Source: JAGLHV01 sp023132075 [NCBI: bacterium]
Lineage (GTDB): Bacteria > CBDUZB01 > JAGLHV01
Reading direction: 5' to 3'
DNA length: 9,733 nucleotides
NCBI GenBank assembly: GCA_023132075.1
Contig: JAGLYT010000038.1
Coordinates: 1 to 9,733 of the forward strand
How positions within the stretch are numbered: position 1 is the stretch's first letter; each line of letters begins with the position of its first letter. The translations under genes and the position numbers were made by a program. Shown here piece by piece: positions 248 through 9,680 of the stretch. The notes beneath the pieces are model-generated. The model had not been told where the DNA came from and did not search any database. It saw nothing but the letters and a program-made list of their open reading frames with translations.

Positions 248-2035
248 GTGAAAATAAAAGGAAAAATAATGAAAGTATCAGGTCCTCTGGTAGTTGCTAC
301 CGATTTGCCGGGGGTAAAGATGTATGAAGTTGTTCGGGTAGGGGAGGAAGGATTAATCGGGGAAGTAGTGGAATTAAAAGGAGACCATGTTTCCATACAG
401 GTTTATGAAGAAACTACCGGAATAGGGCCGGGAGAAATTGTTGTTGCTACCGGACAGCCTTTGTCAGTAGAATTAGGCCCGGGCCTGGTCACTTCCATTT
501 ATGACGGAATTCAAAGGCCGTTAGAAATAATCAAACAGAAAGTGGGGGATTATATTACCCGGGGGATAGATTTACCCAAAATTAATCGGGAGAAAAAATG
601 GAAATTTGTTCCGCAGGCGAAAAAAGGAGAAAAGGTTAATGCAGGGGATGTTTTAGGAGAAGTAAAAGAAACCGAATTAGTAATGCATAAGATTATGGTT
701 CCTCCCGGGGTGGAGGGGACGATAAAAAATATTTTTGAGGGAGAATTTACTGTAGAAGATACTATTGCGGAATTGAGTGTTGAAGGGGAAAAACAAATAA
801 AAAAACTTTGTATGTTACAGCATTGGCCGGTGCGTCAAGCACGGCCTTACCGGAAAAAACTTACACTAGAAGAGCCGTTAATTACCGGTACGCGGGTAAT
901 CGATACTTTTTTTCCCATAGCCAAGGGAGGAACAGCCTGTATCCCGGGGCCTTTTGGAAGTGGAAAAACCGTGGTACTTCACCAATTGGCCAAATGGTCG
1001 GATGCTGATATTATCGTTTATGTGGGATGTGGAGAGAGGGGCAATGAAATGACTGATGTTTTATTAGAATTTCCGGCCTTGAAGGATCCTCTCACCGGGG
1101 AATCATTAATTAAAAGAACAATTTTAATTGCTAATACCTCTAATATGCCGGTAGCGGCACGGGAAGCTTCTATTTATACAGGGATTACGCTGGCTGAATA
1201 TTTTCGGGATATGGGATATAGGGTAGCCTTAATGGCTGACTCAACCTCCCGCTGGGCGGAAGCATTAAGAGAGATGTCCGGAAGATTGGAAGAAATGCCG
1301 GGAGAAGAAGGATATCCTGCCTATTTAGCTTCAAGAATCGCTTCTTTTTATGAGAGGGCAGGAAAGGTAACCTGTTTAGGTTCTGACCAACGAATCGCTT
1401 CTCTTTCTATTGTCGGGGCGGTTTCTCCCCCCGGAGGAGATCTGGCCGACCCGGTAGTACAAAATACTTTGCGTATTGTAAAGGTTTTTTGGGGATTGGA
1501 GGACCGGCTGGCTTATATGCGTCATTTTCCGGCAATAAACTGGTTGCGTAGTTATTCTTTATATGTAGATAATATCAGTGAATACATGGAAAAAGAAGTA
1601 GCTCCGGATTTTATCAAAATGCGTGACGAAGCGCTAAAGATTTTACAAAAAGTAGCTAATCTGGAAGAAATCGTGCGTTTAGTGGGATTGGAGGCATTGT
1701 CTTCGGGAGATAGATTGATTTTAGAAATGGGAAAAACAATAAAAGAAGATTTTTTACATCAACATGCTTTTGATGAAGTAGATACGTATACCTCTTTAAA
1801 AAAACAGTATAGAATGCTTAAGATTATTATGAAATTATATTACTTTGTACAGGAACTATTGGACAAAATTCCTTTTGAGCAATTGATGGAGCTAAAAGTC
1901 AGGGAAGAGATAAGTAAAATGAAATTTATTAAAGAAAAAGAACTTAACCGTTTTGAAGAAATTGAGAAGGAATTGGAAAAAGAGATAAAAATGAAAAAGG
2001 AGTCTTTGGAAAAAGAAAGCGTATTAAGTGAATAA
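248..2035 (+). CDS. atpA: V/A-type ATP synthase catalytic subunit A
   Basis: This 595-residue protein is the ATP-hydrolysing or ATP-synthesising subunit of the V1/A1 head, which alternates with B in an A3B3 ring. The N-terminal beta barrel covers about residues 1-75. The A-specific bulge (non-homologous region) lies around 110-190. The Walker A loop GPFGSGKT is at 234-241, with K240 and T241 binding phosphate and Mg. The catalytic glutamate is E263 in GCGERGNEM, and the Walker B aspartate is D331 in [14 protein letters not shown]. The C-terminal helical domain ends in a charged lysine/glutamate-rich tail. Length and motifs are normal, so the enzyme should be active. The start is GTG at 248, chosen because AAGGAG at 236-241 sits 6 bases upstream; an ATG at 269 lacks as good a site. 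Ion specificity (H+ or Na+) cannot be read from A. Confidence 0.97.
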
Positions 2036-2198: not shown

Positions 2199-3590
2199 TT
2201 GAAAGTTAAAGAATATAGAACTATTTCCGGTATGGCCGGGCCGTTGATTTTTGTAGAAGGAACCGAAGGGGTAAAATACGGAGAAATTGTTGAGGTGCGT
2301 TTAGGGATTGCCGGTGGTAGTAAGGAAAAAGTGCGTACCGGGAAAGTATTGGAAGTAACGGAAGATAAAGTTTTAGTGCAGTTATTTGAAGGCAGTGCAG
2401 GGCTTAATTTAAACGAAAGCCGGATAAGATTTTTAGGAAAAGGGGTTGAATTAGCAGTTTCCCCTGATATGTTGGGAAGAATTTTTGATGGAATGGGAAA
2501 ACCTATTGATGGGGGACCGGAGATTATTGCTGAGAAAAAATTGGATATAAACGGGGAATCAATTAACCCTGCTGCCCGGAATTATCCTAACGAATTTATT
2601 CAAACAGGTGTTTCTGCTATTGATGGGATGAATACCCTGGTACGAGGACAAAAGTTACCTATTTTTACCGGTTCAGGTTTGCCTCATAATGAATTGGCTG
2701 CCCAGATAACTCGCCAGGCAAAAATTTTAGGGAAAGACGAAAAATTTGCAGTCATTTTTGCGGCTATGGGGATTACTTTCGAAGAAGCTGATTATTTTAT
2801 TAATGATTTTAAAAAAACCGGGGCTATTGAAAGAGCAGTCCTTTTTATTAATCTGGCTAATGATCCGGCGATAGAACGGTTGGCTACGCCCCGTATAGCT
2901 TTAACTGCGGCGGAATATCTGGCTTTTAGCCAGGGAATGCATGTATTAGTTATCCTTACGGATATGACTAACTATGGGGAAGCGTTACGGGAAGTTTCTG
3001 CGGCAAGGAAAGAAATTCCGGCCCGGAGGGGTTATCCGGGATATATGTATACGGATTTATCTACTATTTATGAAAGAGCAGGAAGGATCAGGGGGAAAAA
3101 GGGGTCCATTACCCAAATTCCTATTTTGAGTATGCCCGAAGACGATAAAACACATCCTTTACCGGATCTTACCGGATATATTACCGAAGGACAGGTTATT
3201 TTAAGCCGGGAATTATATCACAGGGGTATTTATCCTCCCATAGATATTTTACCTTCTCTTTCCCGCTTGAAGGAAAAAGGTATTGGCCGGGAGAAAACAA
3301 GGGAAGACCATGCTGATGTAACCTCACAGCTTTTTGCTTCTTATGCCCGGGGAAAAGAAGTTAAGGAATTAGCTGTAATATTAGGGGAGGCAGCTCTTTC
3401 TCCTGTAGATAAGTTGTTTTCCCGCTTTGCCGATATATACGAAAATGAATTTGTCAAACAAGCTGAAGATGAAAACCGAAGTATTGAAAATTCTTTAGAT
3501 CTTGCCTGGAAACTTTTAAAAACACTTCCCCGGCAGGAATTAAAGAGAGTAAAAGATGCGATGGCAGAGAAATATATGGGGAAAGAGTAA
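2199..3590 (+). CDS. atpB: V/A-type ATP synthase regulatory subunit B
   Basis: This 463-residue protein is the non-catalytic partner of A in the A3B3 head. The N-terminal beta barrel runs to about residue 75 and the nucleotide-binding-fold domain follows. At the Walker A position it has the B-type sequence [13 protein letters not shown] (about 157-169), lacking the lysine of a functional P-loop, as expected. [14 protein letters not shown] (about 252-265) is the B-subunit counterpart of the Walker B segment. In PSLSRL, R356 is the probable arginine finger reaching into the catalytic site of the adjacent A subunit. The length is normal. The start is TTG at 2199, supported by a strong GAGGAGG at 2187-2193, 5 bases upstream. 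The gene follows A after an unusually long spacer and is followed by D after 4 bases. Confidence 0.97.
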
Positions 3591-4332: not shown

Positions 4333-4638
4333 ATGGATAAAAAAACAAAAATACAAATTGATAAAGTTAAAGAAAAAATTCTTCCGATATTACTTAAATA
4401 TGGGGTAACACATATTGGTTTATTTGGCTCAATTGTTCACGGCATGATGACCAGTAAAAGCGATATTGATATTCTTGTTGAGTTTCCCAAAAAACTTAAG
4501 ATAAGTCTTCTGGATGTTATTCATATCAGAAATGAAATAAAGGATGTATTAGGTAAAGAGGTTGATTTAATTCAATACCCTGCTATTAAGCCGCTATTAA
4601 GAAAGAAGATATTGTCAGAGGAGGTTAAAATACTATGA
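4333..4638 (+). CDS. mntA: MntA-type nucleotidyltransferase antitoxin
   Basis: This 101-residue minimal nucleotidyltransferase belongs to the DNA polymerase beta superfamily. The GSX10DXD signature is complete: G32-S33, then D44 and D46 in SKSDIDILVEF. The third acidic residue is probably D78 in GKEVDLIQY. In characterised MntA-HepT pairs, MntA neutralises HepT by transferring AMP to a tyrosine near the HepT active site. The catalytic residues are all present, so this protein could be active. The start ATG 4333 is preceded by AGGGGA at 4323-4328. Its stop overlaps the hepT start as ATGA (4635-4638), the usual coupled arrangement. Codons in this gene use fewer of the CCGG/CCCGGG-type combinations common in the ATPase genes, which hints at separate origin. 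Confidence 0.88.
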   Translation: MDKKTKIQIDKVKEKILPILLKYGVTHIGLFGSIVHGMMTSKSDIDILVEFPKKLKISLLDVIHIRNEIKDVLGKEVDLIQYPAIKPLLRKKILSEEVKIL

Positions 4639-4988
4639 GTAAAGGCCTAACTGTTTATCTTGACGATATTGTAAAGAGTATAAAAGATATTGAAATATTT
4701 GTAAAAAATATTACAGAGGAAGATTTTTATCAGGATCTGAAGACTCAAAGAGCTGTTAGAGCAACATTGGAAATAATAGGAGAAGCATCGAAGAAGCTTC
4801 CTGATGAATTTAAAAAAAAACATTCTGGTATACCCTGGAGAGATATGACTGATATGCGAAATGTTTTAATTCATGACTAGGGCAATATAATTTTAGATAA
4901 TATTTGGAATGTTATTAAAAATGATTTACCTGAATTAAAAGAGAAAATCGTACCTTTGTGGAAAAAAGAAGTTGGGGATAAAAAATAA
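4635..4988 (+). pseudogene. hepT: HepT-like HEPN toxin interrupted by an in-frame TAG
   Basis: The first 81 codons encode a helical HEPN-domain protein that starts in the ATGA overlap with mntA. It reaches the RNase motif R75-NVLI-H80-D81 (R-X4-H) and then meets TAG at 4878-4880. Without any frameshift the same frame continues for 35 codons (GNIILDNIWNVIKNDLPEL and onward) to TAA at 4986-4988, and this tail is typical of the HepT C-terminus. Total length with the TAG counted as one residue is 117, normal for the family. The TAG stands where HepT proteins have the tyrosine of R-X4-H-X-Y, the residue AMPylated by MntA. The simplest reading is a nonsense mutation (TAT or TAC to TAG) that inactivates the toxin. 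A sequencing error or amber readthrough cannot be excluded. The truncated protein would keep R75 and H80 but lose the last helix. Confidence 0.8.
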
Positions 4989-5110
4989 AAAAAATTGGGA
5001 AAAGTCTGTAAGCTAATAATTCACTTTTTAACAGGAATTAAAAAGAAACAAGATGTAATTAGTTTTTATATACAAAAAAAGAGAACAGATAATTTTTTGT
5101 GTGATAAAAT

Positions 5111-5980
5111 ATGAGTGAAGAAGACAAAATATTAAAAGTATATGATGTAATTTACCCCGGGGAAGAAAAAATTCTTCCTGCTATCTATGAAAAGGATAAA
5201 CAATTCTTTGATATGGCAGTGAAACTATTAAAATTATTCAGTCTTTCGAAAGAGATAATTAAACCGGAGAATATTAGTAAGGAAGTTAGAGACGCATTTT
5301 TCGGATTGCACACGCAATCATTTAGATTATTTCGTTCTATTGTGATATTATGTAAATCCGGTCTTGCATCAGAAGCCTTCATACAACTTCGTTCTTTATT
5401 AGAAGTAATAAGTTATTTGCTTTATATTGCTGAAAAAGATCATCAGGGACGATTAGAATATTATCAACATTCCAGAAGTTTATCGGAAAAAGTTGCTCTG
5501 GATAAATATTTGTATTGGTTTCCTAACAAAAGATCAAATCTAAATAAAAAAATAGAGCAGATAGAGGAGAAAGAAAAAGAAGCAATACAATATTTTAAAA
5601 GAAAACATGGGAAAAATATAAAATTAAAAGAGATTAAAAAGAAATGTTTAAGAGCAAGGCAAGCTGCCGAAACCTTAAAAAATAATAAACTATTTTTTAA
5701 TGATATATATATGTTTATTTATCCTCGCTCATCGGCTATAAGTCATGGTGAGAAAATAGGTGAGTATCTTTCTCCTTCCGATAATCTGACAGAAGTTCGA
5801 GGCCGATTGATGGGAGGACATAGAAGAGTGTGTTTAATTTATTCTTGTAGTCTTTTTTTCTCGGGTATCCAAAGGATAAATGAGTTATTTCAAATAGGAA
5901 AAGATAATATAATAAACGAGATGGGTAAAGAGTTAAAAGAGCTTATTAAAAACAATAATAAGCAAGTAATAAAAAGTTGA
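5111..5980 (+). CDS. DUF5677-like protein of unknown function
   Basis: This 289-residue, predominantly helical, soluble protein has no signal peptide. The stretch at about residues 68-110 reads as helix with FRSIVILC, then an alanine-containing helix and LRSLLEVISYLL, with R94 and E98. A second motif, AISHGE, has S211-H212. This R..E plus S-H pattern resembles the DUF5677 family, whose biochemical role is not established; related helical families occur near defence genes. A basic coiled segment lies at about 155-190. No good Shine-Dalgarno precedes ATG 5111, so the start could be leaderless or misplaced. It follows the MntA-HepT remnant by 122 bases in which no ORF or clear promoter was found. 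The position beside a toxin-antitoxin remnant suggests an accessory or defence role, but that is inference. The family call comes from pattern recall only. Confidence 0.6.
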   Translation: MSEEDKILKVYDVIYPGEEKILPAIYEKDKQFFDMAVKLLKLFSLSKEIIKPENISKEVRDAFFGLHTQSFRLFRSIVILCKSGLASEAFIQLRSLLEVISYLLYIAEKDHQGRLEYYQHSRSLSEKVALDKYLYWFPNKRSNLNKKIEQIEEKEKEAIQYFKRKHGKNIKLKEIKKKCLRARQAAETLKNNKLFFNDIYMFIYPRSSAISHGEKIGEYLSPSDNLTEVRGRLMGGHRRVCLIYSCSLFFSGIQRINELFQIGKDNIINEMGKELKELIKNNNKQVIKS

Positions 5981-5983
5981 CAG

Positions 5984-6010
5984 CTCTCCCCCTATTCCCT
6001 TAGAGGAGAG
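5984..6010 (+). other. small hairpin before the TIM-barrel gene
   Basis: CTCTCC (5984-5989) and GGAGAG (6005-6010) can pair as a perfect 6-base stem around a 15-base loop, starting 3 bases after the previous stop codon. It is not followed by a T-run, so it is not a standard terminator. The TIM-barrel ribosome site (GAGGT, 6024-6028) lies outside the stem. Confidence 0.3.
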
Positions 6011-6035
6011 ATAAGGTCAAAATGAGGTAATTTAA

Positions 6036-6848
6036 ATGCCGGTAATCGGGATGGCTACCAGTAATTTTTTTTTGGTAAAAGATGTTTATGAAGCAGTAAA
6101 ATTTGCCCGGGAGAATGAGTTTTCCGGGGTAGAGATATGGAGCGATGTTCCCCATTGTTATGTAGACGATTTTACCCGGGATAAAGAGCAGTGGAGCAGG
6201 TTGCATACACTTTTAACGGAAAGTAAGATGAAAAGTGCTTTACATGCCCCTATGTTTGGAATAAATATTGCTTCGATAAATCATGGTATACGGAAAGAAT
6301 CAATACGGCAGGTAAAAGCCTCTATAGATTTAGCCCATACCTTAGGAAGTGAAATAGTAGTTTTTCATTCAGGGAAACGGCCTGCAGTAATAACTCCTTC
6401 CAGAGTAAAAGAGCTAACTTTTAATTTGAATATAGATGCCATCATGGCGATAAAAAATTATGCCCGGGAAAAAAAAGTGTATGCAGTATTAGAAAATTGT
6501 GGAGTAGATAGGGATGATTATGAGGAGAGTTTAGCTGATTTTGTGCATCTGGTTGAAACCTGTAAAATAAATGTATGCTGGGATGTGGGGCATTCTCACT
6601 GTTCCTGGGGGGTAAAAGAGACTTTTGAGTCTTTAAAAGACAAAATCAAGCATATTCATATTCACGATAATGATAGGTCTTATGACCAGCATTTACCCGT
6701 CGGAATGGGAAATATTGATTACCAATTGATTTTTCCTTTTTTAAAAGAATTTCCGGGGATGATTGTTCATGAAATTCAAGGTATGAATAACTGTGAGGAA
6801 AAAACTATTCAGAGTAAAAAAGAACTAGATAAATTATTAAGATATTAA
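6036..6848 (+). CDS. xylose-isomerase-like TIM-barrel protein (sugar phosphate isomerase/epimerase family)
   Basis: This 270-residue cytosolic protein belongs to the AP endonuclease 2/xylose isomerase-like TIM-barrel superfamily (PF01261 type). Beta strands ending in polar residues repeat through the chain: FSGVEIW, SALHAP, IVVFHSG, YAVLENCG, INVCWDVGHSH, IKHIHIHDND and IVHEIQG. The expected divalent metal ligands are visible as E153 (LENCG), D183 (CWDVGH), a histidine among H206/H208/H210, and E246 (VHEIQ). These fit an isomerase or epimerase active site, but members of this fold also include endonuclease IV and various lyases, so the substrate cannot be assigned. The ATG at 6036 has GAGGT at 6024-6028, 7 bases upstream. 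The next gene is a purine permease 228 bases downstream; a shared pathway is possible but not shown. Confidence 0.85.
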   Translation: MPVIGMATSNFFLVKDVYEAVKFARENEFSGVEIWSDVPHCYVDDFTRDKEQWSRLHTLLTESKMKSALHAPMFGINIASINHGIRKESIRQVKASIDLAHTLGSEIVVFHSGKRPAVITPSRVKELTFNLNIDAIMAIKNYAREKKVYAVLENCGVDRDDYEESLADFVHLVETCKINVCWDVGHSHCSWGVKETFESLKDKIKHIHIHDNDRSYDQHLPVGMGNIDYQLIFPFLKEFPGMIVHEIQGMNNCEEKTIQSKKELDKLLRY

Positions 6849-6910
6849 AGTGAATGAGTTTATTTAATAATACTGTAATATTTTAAGTAATAGTTAAAAG
6901 ACGGTTGAAT

Positions 6911-6963
6911 TGCTTGCTTGTCCTCCAATCTTTAAGGAGGGTCTCGCCAGTCTGTTATGGCGG
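6911..6963 (+). repeat. hairpin repeat, copy 1 (two adjacent units)
   Basis: Unit a is CCTCC (6922-6926) pairing with GGAGG (6936-6940) over a 9-base loop. Unit b is CGCCA (6945-6949) pairing with TGGCG (6958-6962) over an 8-base loop. Unit a matches the hairpin at 9588-9617 closely. The unit b sequence CGCCAGTCTGTT (6945-6956) recurs exactly in inverted orientation at 8480-8491. No T-run follows, so terminator function is unlikely. Confidence 0.7.
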
Positions 6964-7030: not shown

Positions 7031-7080
7031 TCTTACGCGTAATTTTACTCTATTTACTGAAGGGGCGAAATAATCTATGA
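7021..7080 (+). CDS. possible 19-residue hydrophobic leader peptide
   Basis: An ATG at 7021, six bases after AAAGG (7010-7014), opens a 19-codon frame (MFSLLRVILLYLLKGRNNL). Its TGA at 7078-7080 overlaps the permease ATG as ATGA. That arrangement would couple translation of the two. The peptide is hydrophobic and then basic. Its start region (AAAGGCAAAA, one base, ATGTTTT) is repeated at 9714-9731, suggesting selection or a shared repeat origin. Such a short frame can occur by chance, so translation is unproven. Confidence 0.35.
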   Translation: MFSLLRVILLYLLKGRNNL

Positions 7081-8390
7081 ATCGAGTATTAGAAAAAATT
7101 TTTAAATTAAAAGCTCATGGAACGACAATAAAAACAGAAATATTGGCGGGCCTGGTTACTTTTATGACTATGGCTTATATTATTGTCGTTAATCCGGCTA
7201 TTCTACAAAGGGCCGGGATACCTATAGGGCCATCGATGGTAGCGACAGTAATTGCTGCTTTTTTTGGAACAATATTAATGGCTTGTTATGCTAATAGGCC
7301 TTTTGCTATTGCCCCTTATATGGGGGAAAATGCTTTTATTGCTTTTACAGTGGTAGGTGTATTGGGCTATTCCTGGCAAACTGCCCTGGGAGCGGTTTTT
7401 ATCGGGGGCGTAATTTTTACATTCCTCACTGTCTTTAAACTGCGGGGTTGGTTAGCTAATGCTATTCCGATGGGACTTAAATATAGTTTTGCCGCTGGGA
7501 TTGGGCTGTTTTTAACCTTTATCGGGTTAAATGAAACCGGTATTATTTGTTTAGGTGTTCCCGGGGCACCTGTTCATCTGGGTAAGGTTACCAGCACACC
7601 GGTGTTATTATCTATCTTTTGTTTCCTTTTAATTGCTTCTTTAATGATTAAAAAGATAAAAGGTTCCATAATCATTGGAATATTAGCAACGACTTTTTTG
7701 TCTTTTATTTTTGGAGTAGCAGAAGTTCCTTCCAGTTGGATTAGTTTTCCCCCCAGTATTGCCCCTATTTTTCTTAAAATAGATTTTTTAGGTGCTTTAA
7801 AATGGGGATTTGTTCCGATAATCCTTACCTTATTTATTATGGATTTTGTGGATACTATTGGAACATTAATTGGAGTTTCCGCCCGGGCGGGATTTTTAGA
7901 TAACAAGGGAAATCTTCCTGAAATAGAAAAACCGATGTTAGCTGATGCCTTAGCTACTGTTGTTGGTTCATTGGTAGGAACTACAACCACCGGGACTTAC
8001 ATTGAATCGGCTGCAGGAATTGAAGAAGGTGGCCGGACAGGATTGAGTTCTTTGATTGTAGCTCTCTTGTTTTTAAGTAGTCTTTTTTTTGTTCCTTTTC
8101 TTACTGCAATTCCTTCTCTGGCTTACGGTCCGGTTTTAATTATTGTTGGTCTTTTAATGTTAGAGTCAATAACTAAAATTGATTTTAAAGACTATACAGA
8201 ATCTATACCTGCTTTTGTTGTTATAATTTTAATGAGTTTTACTTATAATATTGGGGTAGGGATAACGGGAGGATTTGTTCTTTATCCTTTTTTTAAAATA
8301 GTTGCCGGCAGATATAAAGAAATTCATCCGGCAATGTGGGTGTTAACCGGGATGTCTCTTTTGTTTTTTATTTTTTATCCTTATGGATGA
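7077..8390 (+). CDS. AzgA/PbuG-type purine (guanine/hypoxanthine or adenine) permease, NCS2 family
   Basis: This 437-residue polytopic inner-membrane protein probably imports purine bases by proton symport. The N-terminus carries the family signature AGLVTFMTMAYIIVVNP (24-40). The substrate-site half-helices appear at APYMGENAFIAF (79-90) and at TTTTGTYIESAAGIEEGGRT (302-321). DFVDTIGTLIG (256-266) matches the conserved helix-8 motif with acidic residues. Long hydrophobic stretches account for about 12-14 membrane segments, as in the family. Where many relatives have APGMGLNAYF, this protein has APYMGENAFI, so it belongs to a divergent subgroup and exact base specificity is unclear. The ATG at 7077 has GAAGGGG at about 7059-7065 and overlaps the end of a possible leader ORF. 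No purine riboswitch core was found upstream. Confidence 0.9.
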   Translation: MNRVLEKIFKLKAHGTTIKTEILAGLVTFMTMAYIIVVNPAILQRAGIPIGPSMVATVIAAFFGTILMACYANRPFAIAPYMGENAFIAFTVVGVLGYSWQTALGAVFIGGVIFTFLTVFKLRGWLANAIPMGLKYSFAAGIGLFLTFIGLNETGIICLGVPGAPVHLGKVTSTPVLLSIFCFLLIASLMIKKIKGSIIIGILATTFLSFIFGVAEVPSSWISFPPSIAPIFLKIDFLGALKWGFVPIILTLFIMDFVDTIGTLIGVSARAGFLDNKGNLPEIEKPMLADALATVVGSLVGTTTTGTYIESAAGIEEGGRTGLSSLIVALLFLSSLFFVPFLTAIPSLAYGPVLIIVGLLMLESITKIDFKDYTESIPAFVVIILMSFTYNIGVGITGGFVLYPFFKIVAGRYKEIHPAMWVLTGMSLLFFIFYPYG

Positions 8391-8463
8391 AGAAAAGTAG
8401 ACAGATAATTAGATAAAAAATAGATTTTTTCGTACTAAAAGTGTAGGGAAGAGTAAATGTAGG

Positions 8464-8506
8464 GCAAGGCTTTCCTCCAAACAGACTGGCGGACAAGTAG
8501 CCTTGC
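8464..8506. repeat. hairpin repeat, inverted copy 3, inside an 8-base inverted repeat
   Basis: GCAAGGCT (8464-8471) and AGCCTTGC (8499-8506) are perfect inverted repeats. The 27 bases between them, read on the - strand, give TGTCCGCCAGTCTGTTTGG followed by AGG, which aligns with the hairpin units at 6920-6941 and 9596-9617. AACAGACTGGCG at 8480-8491 is the exact reverse complement of 6945-6956. Lying after the permease stop, it could stabilise a 3' end, but no T-run follows the stem. Confidence 0.65.
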
Positions 8507-8557
8507 GTTGTAAAAAGTAAGGCAGATTTTTAGAGATTATTCGACAATATACTTAAG

Positions 8558-8581
8558 AAATTGTTTCACGTGAAACAATTT
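8558..8581. other. parS: parS centromere-like site (ParB/Spo0J binding)
   Basis: A 24-base perfect palindrome is centred between 8569 and 8570. Its core at 8562-8577 is TGTTTCACGTGAAACA, which fits the chromosomal parS consensus TGTTNCACGTGAAACA and is fully symmetric. ParB (Spo0J) loads as a CTP-dependent clamp at such sites, spreads on flanking DNA and recruits ParA and SMC for origin segregation. It lies in a 256-base gene-free stretch between the permease and patatin genes. parS sites usually cluster near the replication origin, so this window is probably origin-proximal, although plasmids carry related sites. The parA/parB genes are not in the window. Confidence 0.9.
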
Positions 8582-8592
8582 AGCAGTATCTT

Positions 8593-8598
8593 TATAAT
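8593..8598 (+). promoter_or_regulatory. possible -10 element for the patatin gene
   Basis: TATAAT at 8593-8598 is a consensus sigma-70-type -10 hexamer, 49 bases before the patatin start. No good -35 is present 16-18 bases upstream; that position falls inside the parS palindrome. The AT-rich context makes a chance match plausible. Confidence 0.3.
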
Positions 8599-8646
8599 TA
8601 ATATTAGAGGGATATTTAATTTGCCGATTAAATATGGTGAAATAAT

Positions 8647-9564
8647 ATGCGTAAATTAAAGGTTGGTTTGGCTCTGGGTGGTGGTGGAGCAAGGGGATTT
8701 GCTCATTTGGGAGTTTTAAAAGTCTTTCAACAACATAAAATTCCCATTGACATTATTGCCGGAACAAGTATGGGGGCAATGATTGGAGGATTGTATGCTT
8801 TACATCCGGATATTGATTTTTTGGAAAATAAAATACAAAATAATCTAAAAAGCGATTTATTCGGGGAACTGAGTAGAAATCTTTTAAAACAAGATGAGCA
8901 GAGTCAAATCAGGCCATTCAATCGTTTTATTAGTTATATTAAACAGTTATACCTTTATTATAATTTATACAAAAAGAAAGATTCTCTCCTGGAAGAAAAA
9001 CAAATAGAAAAGATTTTAGAGGTGCTTTTTTCCAAAAAGAATATAGAAGACGCAAAAATTCCGTTTGTTTGTGTGGCGGCAGATCTTTGCAAAGGAGAAG
9101 AAATTATTTTTTCCCGGGGGCCAATAAGAGAAGCCGTGCAGGCAAGTATGACTATTCCCGGGGTTTTTCCCCCTTTACGCTGGAAAGAAAAATTGCTGGT
9201 GGATGGAGCGGTAGTAGAAACTGTCCCGGTGAATGCGGCTTTTAAATTGGGAGCGGATATAGTAATTGCGGTAGATGTGAGGAGTAAATTACGACATATA
9301 AGTAGTATAGATAATGGCCTTGCTATTATTTTTAGAGCAAATAAGATTAGCGGGATAAATTTTTCTGATTTGCAATTGAAGAAGGCGGATTTCGTGCTTA
9401 GTCCCGGAATAAAAAATATTTCCTGGATGAGTTTTAAAAAAGCTGATTTTTGTATTCAACAGGGAGAAAAAGAGGCAAATTTAAAGATAGAGGAAGTAAA
9501 ATCCTTAATAAATAGAATGCGAAAAAAGACATTTTTAAAAAGGCTTCTGGGAAGAGAAAGTTAA
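8647..9564 (+). CDS. patatin-like phospholipase, RssA-type
   Basis: This 305-residue protein is a serine acyl hydrolase of the bacterial patatin family, expected to cleave acyl esters of phospholipids or related lipids. The oxyanion-hole loop GGGGARG is at 11-17. The nucleophile elbow is GTSMG with S41 as the probable catalytic serine. The second dyad member is D186 in VDGAVVE. The order and spacing match the RssA/YchK-type proteins of about 300 residues, and no signal peptide is visible, so the protein is probably cytosolic or loosely membrane-associated. A region rich in tyrosine and lysine at about 98-120 (YIKQLYLYYNLYKKK) may lie against a membrane. The C-terminus is basic. ATG 8647 has GGTGA at 8636-8640, 6 bases upstream. 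The natural substrate cannot be inferred. Confidence 0.9.
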   Translation: MRKLKVGLALGGGGARGFAHLGVLKVFQQHKIPIDIIAGTSMGAMIGGLYALHPDIDFLENKIQNNLKSDLFGELSRNLLKQDEQSQIRPFNRFISYIKQLYLYYNLYKKKDSLLEEKQIEKILEVLFSKKNIEDAKIPFVCVAADLCKGEEIIFSRGPIREAVQASMTIPGVFPPLRWKEKLLVDGAVVETVPVNAAFKLGADIVIAVDVRSKLRHISSIDNGLAIIFRANKISGINFSDLQLKKADFVLSPGIKNISWMSFKKADFCIQQGEKEANLKIEEVKSLINRMRKKTFLKRLLGRES

Positions 9565-9587
9565 AAAATTTTGGAATTGGTGAGTTT

Positions 9588-9617
9588 GCCTGCCTGTCCT
9601 TCAGTCTGTAAGGAGGG
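9588..9617 (+). repeat. hairpin repeat, copy 2
   Basis: CCTTC (9598-9602) can pair with GGAGG (9612-9616) using one G-T wobble, or CCTT (9598-9601) with AAGG (9610-9613). The surrounding bases match 6913-6941 at most positions (TTGCCTGCCTGTCC against TTGCTTGCTTGTCC, then TAAGGAGGGT in both, with adjoining A). It lies just after the patatin stop, in the same orientation as copy 1. Confidence 0.7.
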
Positions 9618-9680
9618 TTTAGGGTTTAGATATTAGGATTTCGGATTTGTCTGTTTGTGTTTATGACAATGTGTGACTAT

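What the first reader, a model, noticed from the sequence alone, without database searches (positions are those of the whole stretch)
8558..8581. Perfect parS site in a 24-base palindrome, away from any par genes
The core at 8562-8577 fits the parS consensus known from Spo0J/ParB systems and is fully symmetric, with four additional symmetric bases on each side. A 24-base exact palindrome is very unlikely by chance. It marks the window as probably origin-proximal and implies a ParABS system elsewhere in the genome. It also sits just before a TATAAT, so ParB loading might affect the patatin promoter.
Basis: partly seen in the sequence, partly recalled or inferred. Interest (0 to 1): 0.72.

Follow-up and report, generated by a model that had tools for sequence, protein, structure and literature searches.

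The report
Ordinary chromosome-segregation parS site near origin
This is a textbook docking site for the bacterial chromosome-segregation protein ParB, close to the replication origin and probably a few thousand bases from the partner genes, so it is ordinary.

Summary
Window 8558-8581 is an exact 24-base palindrome around an exact 16-base parS, TGTTTCACGTGAAACA, at 8562-8577. The 16-mer is expected 0.0001-0.0007 times in this 1.87 Mb assembly; the palindrome alone is weaker evidence (0.28 expected). The origin-proximal ParABS reading is supported. One ParB was found in the assembly, with the parS-type residues R173 and G201, and a ParA, both on contig C21. The 24 bases are identical in a sister species, G002, which has a second parS 2 kb away between rsmG and an amylase gene. 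The gene order pieced together from both genomes is dnaA - rnpA - yidC - nadD - argS - mnmE - V-ATPase - permease - parS - patatin - rsmG - parS - amylase - parA - parB, with the GC-skew switch at dnaA: parS is about 39 kb from dnaA and 3.9 kb from parA in G002. "Away from any par genes" is therefore best read as an assembly effect: the stretch with rsmG and the second parS is missing from the own assembly. A promoter-like pair overlaps parS before patatin; regulation is unproven. Verdict: an ordinary chromosomal parS.

The parts
8562..8577 (.). parS core TGTTTCACGTGAAACA, predicted ParB-binding and loading site
   Evidence: exact consensus, sole copy in the assembly; conserved in sister genome G002
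8558..8581 (.). 24-base perfect palindrome holding the parS core, with 4 extra symmetric A/T bases on each side
   Evidence: all 24 bases identical in G002
8570..8598 (+). promoter-like pair GTGAAA - 17 - TATAAT; the first hexamer lies inside the right half of parS (inferred, weak)
   Evidence: 10 of 12 consensus matches; 3 sites found against 1.2 expected in 8380-8700; same arrangement in G002
8647..9564 (+). patatin-like phospholipase gene (305 aa), the neighbour downstream of parS
   Evidence: PF01734, E 1e-33; below the cut-off of the RssA model NF007623 (140 of 272 bits)
7077..8390 (+). Xan_ur_permease-family transporter gene upstream of parS
   Evidence: PF00860, E 2.2e-41

Best explanation
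The palindrome is a chromosomal parS: the 16-base site on which ParB (encoded at G000:C21:1062-1910, -) binds, is loaded as a CTP clamp and spreads along neighbouring DNA. ParA (C21:4486-5247, -) then moves the ParB-covered origin region towards the daughter cells, and SMC is probably recruited there. It is one of probably two parS sites flanking patatin-rsmG near parA, about 39 kb from dnaA in the sister genome. Shown here by computation: the exact site, its conservation in the sister, one ParB with the parS-type specificity residues, a ParA, and an origin-proximal gene order with a skew switch at dnaA. Inferred from established knowledge of ParABS: binding, loading, spreading, segregation and SMC recruitment.
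For: Exact consensus far above chance. One ParB_N match in the assembly, with ParB_N, HTH_ParB and ParB_C domains all over cut-off, a GERRWR stretch, and Q162, G170, K171, R173, N178, G201, R204 in Caulobacter numbering; R173 and G201 mark parS rather than NBS binding (PMC7383237, passages). ParA on the same contig. In G002: parS at C148:5273 and 7340, parA starting at 3465, rsmG and the patatin gene between the two sites. All 24 bases identical between own and G002 copies while the flanks differ. Own contigs C312 and C21 align to G002 C148 in compatible order and orientation. Own contig C324 bridges G002 C175 (gyrB-dnaN-dnaA, then rnpA-yidC, with skew switch) to C148 and ends, in G002 coordinates, about 0.4 kb before the window begins. 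Among 24 other genomes with exact sites (the parS-bearing genomes except G000 and G002), 20 have a ParA, ParB or RsmG match in the stretch of up to about 10 kb either side (no control on random stretches was run).
Against: Only one site is in the own assembly. The other same-genus genome, G001 (94% complete), has no parS with up to 2 mismatches although it has a ParB; RsmG and this patatin orthologue are also not found there, so an assembly gap is likely but not shown. G002 shows no ParB_N match: its contig C148 ends on that side of parA. 4 of the 24 comparison genomes (G018, G037, G038, G040) show no ParA, ParB or RsmG match near their sites. The 711-base overlap of C175 and C148 is only 96.3% identical and the C175 copy has an in-frame stop, so the join rests on own contig C324. 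No genome is closed. No binding data.
Confidence: 0.95

Rival explanations
1. A Noc-binding site (NBS) or other operator of a ParB paralogue.
For: The best NCBIfam hit of the genome's ParB is nucleoid_noc TIGR04285 (256 bits), Noc and ParB being close paralogues.
Against: That score is below the Noc model's cut-off of 315 bits. The protein has R173 and G201, not Q173 and R201, and no lysine at 179 or 184 (against PMC7383237, passages). The site is parS, and the NBS core looked for is not in the window. Only one ParB_N match is in the assembly, which is 87% complete.
Confidence: 0.02
2. parS that also serves as an operator (an addition to the best explanation, not an alternative): ParB bound there represses the patatin promoter, because the presumed -35 hexamer lies within parS.
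For: Promoter-like pair 8570-8598, 10 of 12 matches, kept in G002. Precedent: P. aeruginosa ParB represses PA0011 and PA0013 through intergenic parS3 and parS4 (review PMC7022226, section headed 10, read in full).
Against: 3 promoter-like sites found against 1.2 expected. Over 103 of 104 parS sides (one dropped for want of sequence), a TATAAT-like hexamer at 16-18 bases occurs twice, both in this genus; other spacings give 0-5 (among the 23 sides in DNA under 42% G+C: 2, other spacings 0-4). In B. [quoted passage not shown] Two close species cannot show selection for it.
Confidence: 0.15
3. A chance palindrome or a transcription-factor operator with no link to ParB.
For: 24-base palindromes are expected 0.28 times in an assembly of this size.
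Against: The exact parS 16-mer is expected 0.0001-0.0007 times; it is conserved in the sister and lies near parA and rsmG there.
Confidence: 0.02

Closest known systems
Chromosomal parS of ParABS systems (B. subtilis consensus TGTTNCACGTGAAACA, table passage in PMC7022226)
   Same: Identical 16-base site, origin-proximal, one ParB found and a ParA, more than one site near parA in the sister genome.
   Different: Nothing essential. Four extra symmetric A/T bases on each side; in G002 an alpha-amylase gene and a parS lie between rsmG and parA, and on own contig C21 parA and parB are 2.6 kb apart.
NBS of the Noc system
   Same: 16-base ParB-family site (PMC7383237, passages; PMC8429893, start of abstract in the listing).
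   Different: Different bases at the two discriminating positions; no Noc-type protein detected.
P. aeruginosa parS3 and parS4, intergenic parS with local repression (PMC7022226, section headed 10)
   Same: Intergenic parS directly upstream of a gene.
   Different: No expression data here.

Membership tests
Chromosomal parS (ParABS) | Match to the TGTTNCACGTGNAACA consensus, palindromic | tested here: met
   Exact, fully symmetric
Chromosomal parS (ParABS) | Cognate ParB with parS-type specificity residues in the same genome | tested here: met
   One ParB_N match; ParB_N + HTH_ParB + ParB_C; R173 and G201 (residues from PMC7383237, passages)
Chromosomal parS (ParABS) | ParA in the same genome | tested here: met
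   C21:4486-5247, AAA_31 1.1e-68 and CbiA 1.8e-26; no NCBIfam equivalog model passed its cut-off among the 25 of 30 families shown
Chromosomal parS (ParABS) | Origin-proximal position | tested here: met
   About 39 kb from dnaA by overlapping contigs of G000 and G002; skew switch at dnaA; inferred order, not a closed genome
Chromosomal parS (ParABS) | Near the parAB genes or clustered with further sites (usual, not required) | tested here: met
   In G002: second parS 2.05 kb away, parA 3.9 kb away; in the own assembly the stretch is missing
Chromosomal parS (ParABS) | ParB binding, CTP-dependent loading and spreading | not testable with these tools
   Needs purified protein or ChIP-seq
NBS (Noc) | NBS sequence and a Noc with Q173, K179/K184, R201 | tested here: not met
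   Residues R, S, N, G; site is parS; Noc model below cut-off

The most novel reading that the evidence does not exclude
In this genus parS doubles as a regulatory element: the patatin promoter's -35 hexamer is built into the right half of parS, so loading of ParB at the origin shuts off, or gates by cell cycle, a lipid hydrolase gene.
Probability: 0.12. Interest if true: 0.4.

Novelty: new member of a known kind. Interest (0 to 1): 0.12.

Why it matters
It places a contig of a fragmentary assembly next to the replication origin and shows that this lineage has a standard ParABS system with a ParB predicted to be parS-specific. It also shows how an assembly break can make a parS site look orphaned. 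No principle of segregation changes.

Tried and rejected
Considered Noc/NBS: rejected on specificity residues and model cut-off. Considered that the site is a lone orphan: rejected because the sister's second site falls in a stretch missing from the own assembly. Considered that parS sites generally carry a promoter at this spacing: not enriched. Sites with 3 mismatches in the own genome: 8 against 5 for the control, dropped as chance. The many weak DNA hits are short and scattered over many contigs (dispersed repeats); they were not used for the contig order. In those two calls only 40 of 325 and 40 of 169 first-look candidates were scored for G000, so a weak match could be missed, though the parS core itself was found. 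The cumulative-skew minimum of L111 falls between dnaN and dnaA, whereas two DnaA-box-like sites lie between dnaA and rnpA; the exact origin was not pursued. The named-genome scan gave 4 loci, of which only L073 (a contig labelled 'Clostridia bacterium isolate CSMAG_496', of the same length as G002's C148) matches at 92%; the phylum was not settled. Livny 2007 (PMC2168934) is not held and was not read.

Full report
Observation. The 24 bases at 8558-8581 form a perfect palindrome, and 8562-8577 is TGTTTCACGTGAAACA. It is the longest perfect palindrome in the window; the five others of at least 12 bases have exactly 12. With the window's base composition the exact 16-mer is expected 0.0007 times in the 1,874,619-base assembly, and 0.0001 times under a first-order Markov model; a 24-base palindrome of any sequence is expected 0.28 times in the assembly. 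So the match to parS, not the symmetry as such, is the strong evidence. The pattern TGTTNCACGTGNAACA occurs once in the assembly and never as the reversed control. Allowing 3 mismatches adds 8 places, all with exactly 3, against 5 for the control.

The genome has the partner genes. One ParB_N match was found in the own assembly, on contig C21. The protein carries ParB_N, HTH_ParB and ParB_C domains above Pfam cut-offs, and a ParA-type ATPase gene lies on the same contig, 2.6 kb away. Its six best matches among solved structures are called ParB or Spo0J, followed by Noc and ParB chains (16 matched sequences in all). In the numbering of Caulobacter ParB, fixed by counting from the LTQE stretch, it has Q162, G170, K171, R173, N178, G201 and R204; position 172 is T instead of S, 179 is S and 184 is N. 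PMC7383237 (passages) reports that R173 and G201 contact parS and are conserved in ParB, that Noc has Q173 and R201, and that 179 and 184 vary among ParBs but are almost always lysine in Noc. The protein is therefore predicted to read parS, not NBS. The NCBIfam Noc model is its best hit there (256 bits) but below that model's cut-off of 315.

The site is not really apart from the par genes. In the same-genus genome G002 two exact parS sites lie on contig C148 at 5273 and 7340. Reading from the window's permease onwards the order is permease - REP-associated tyrosine transposase - parS - patatin - rsmG - parS - alpha-amylase - parA - a gene that matches the one lying between parA and parB on own contig C21. 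parA starts at 3465, so the counterpart of the window's parS is 3.9 kb from it. The 24-base palindrome is identical in both species, while the surrounding aligned DNA is about 90% identical. Own C21 matches C148:166-3504, and the window matches C148 between 17983 and 6368 in six pieces. The 2.9 kb between holds the amylase gene, the second parS and rsmG. Searched alone (2,606 bases), this stretch gives in the own assembly only short matches in its first 200 bases and the parS of the window (40 of 169 candidates scored), and no GidB/RsmG family match exists in the own assembly. The single site and the missing par genes are thus best read as an assembly gap.

The site is origin-proximal. G002 contig C175 carries gyrB (cut by the end of the stretch fetched, below the model's cut-off), dnaN and dnaA on one strand and rnpA and yidC on the other, named by NCBIfam, and the GC skew changes sign at dnaA. 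Its end overlaps the end of C148 by 711 bases at 96.3%; the C175 copy of the gene there has an in-frame stop. Own contig C324 is collinear with both, running proA - nadD - an LCP-like gene - rsfS - argS - rsmI - mnmE - jag - ntpI and ending, in G002 coordinates, about 0.4 kb before the point where the window starts (100 bases of C324 were not read). The names nadD, rsfS, argS, mnmE and jag come from NCBIfam; proA, LCP-like, rsmI and ntpI are recalled from the look of the proteins. By arithmetic on these coordinates parS lies 11.9 + 27.0 = about 39 kb from dnaA in G002. The window's own skew is positive in all seven 1.5-kb blocks, as on the rnpA side of C175. Own dnaA is on C136, which matches the dnaA stretch of C175. 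The order across contigs is inferred, since none of the three genomes is closed.

Comparison set. Of 41 genomes searched, 26 have exact sites. Leaving out G000 and G002, I fetched stretches of up to about 10 kb on either side, where the contigs allowed, for all 24 others; 20 of 24 have a tblastn match (E up to 1e-8) to ParA, ParB or RsmG in them, two of these 20 (G005, G008) to RsmG alone, and 4 (G018, G037, G038, G040) have none. G011 has three stretches, of which one has the matches; it is counted as positive. No control on random stretches was run. G001, same genus, has no site with up to 2 mismatches and no RsmG match but does have a ParB at 78% identity to the own one; its parS remains unseen.

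Promoter question. A pair GTGAAA-17-TATAAT (8570-8598) overlaps the right half of parS; 69 bases lie between parS and the patatin ATG, and the pair is kept in G002. Three promoter-like sites were found in the 321 bases scanned against 1.2 expected (sd 1.1). Over 103 parS sides a TATAAT-like hexamer at 16-18 bases occurs twice, both in this genus; other spacings give 0-5. Local repression by ParB at intergenic parS is documented in P. aeruginosa, while in B. subtilis genes next to parS did not change (PMC7022226, section headed 10, read in full). It remains possible and unproven.

Function. By established knowledge of ParABS (reviews PMC7333895 and PMC7022226, passages), ParB loads at parS, spreads, is moved by ParA and recruits SMC, and one origin-proximal parS can suffice. 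These steps are inferred for this organism.

Verdict. An ordinary chromosomal parS; the lineage was not identified beyond the label of the sister's contig.

Noticed in passing
L036:14362-17727 (G002) against window 248-2035: The V/A-type ATPase subunit A gene of the sister genome carries an intein (Intein_splicing 3.6e-19, LAGLIDADG_3 5.9e-19) inserted right after the P-loop lysine; the window's copy is intein-free and aligns on both sides of it.
   Followed up: partly
window 4333-4880: Nucleotidyltransferase and HepT-like gene pair; the HepT-like frame is cut short by an in-frame stop (81 aa, matching positions 3-93 of 120), and the sister G002 has the nucleotidyltransferase ORF but only about 100 bases between it and the next gene, so no room for the HepT-like gene.
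   Followed up: partly
window about 6899-6960, 8455-8520, 9580-9640 (by eye); L036:48-186 and 6157-6341: Dispersed short repeats: the L036 stretches match dozens of contigs of G000 and G001, and a REP-associated tyrosine transposase gene sits beside parS in G002. They may explain the many contig breaks, including the one that hides rsmG and the second parS.
   Followed up: partly
window 5111-5980: DUF5677 protein of unknown function between the HepT-like gene and a TIM-barrel (AP_endonuc_2) gene; no such ORF is listed at this place in G002, and window 4695-6019 has no DNA match there.
   Followed up: no
L094:10670, L101:10001: Other genomes carry parS in longer perfect palindromes (40 and 32 bases), so symmetric flanks beyond the 16-mer recur.
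   Followed up: no
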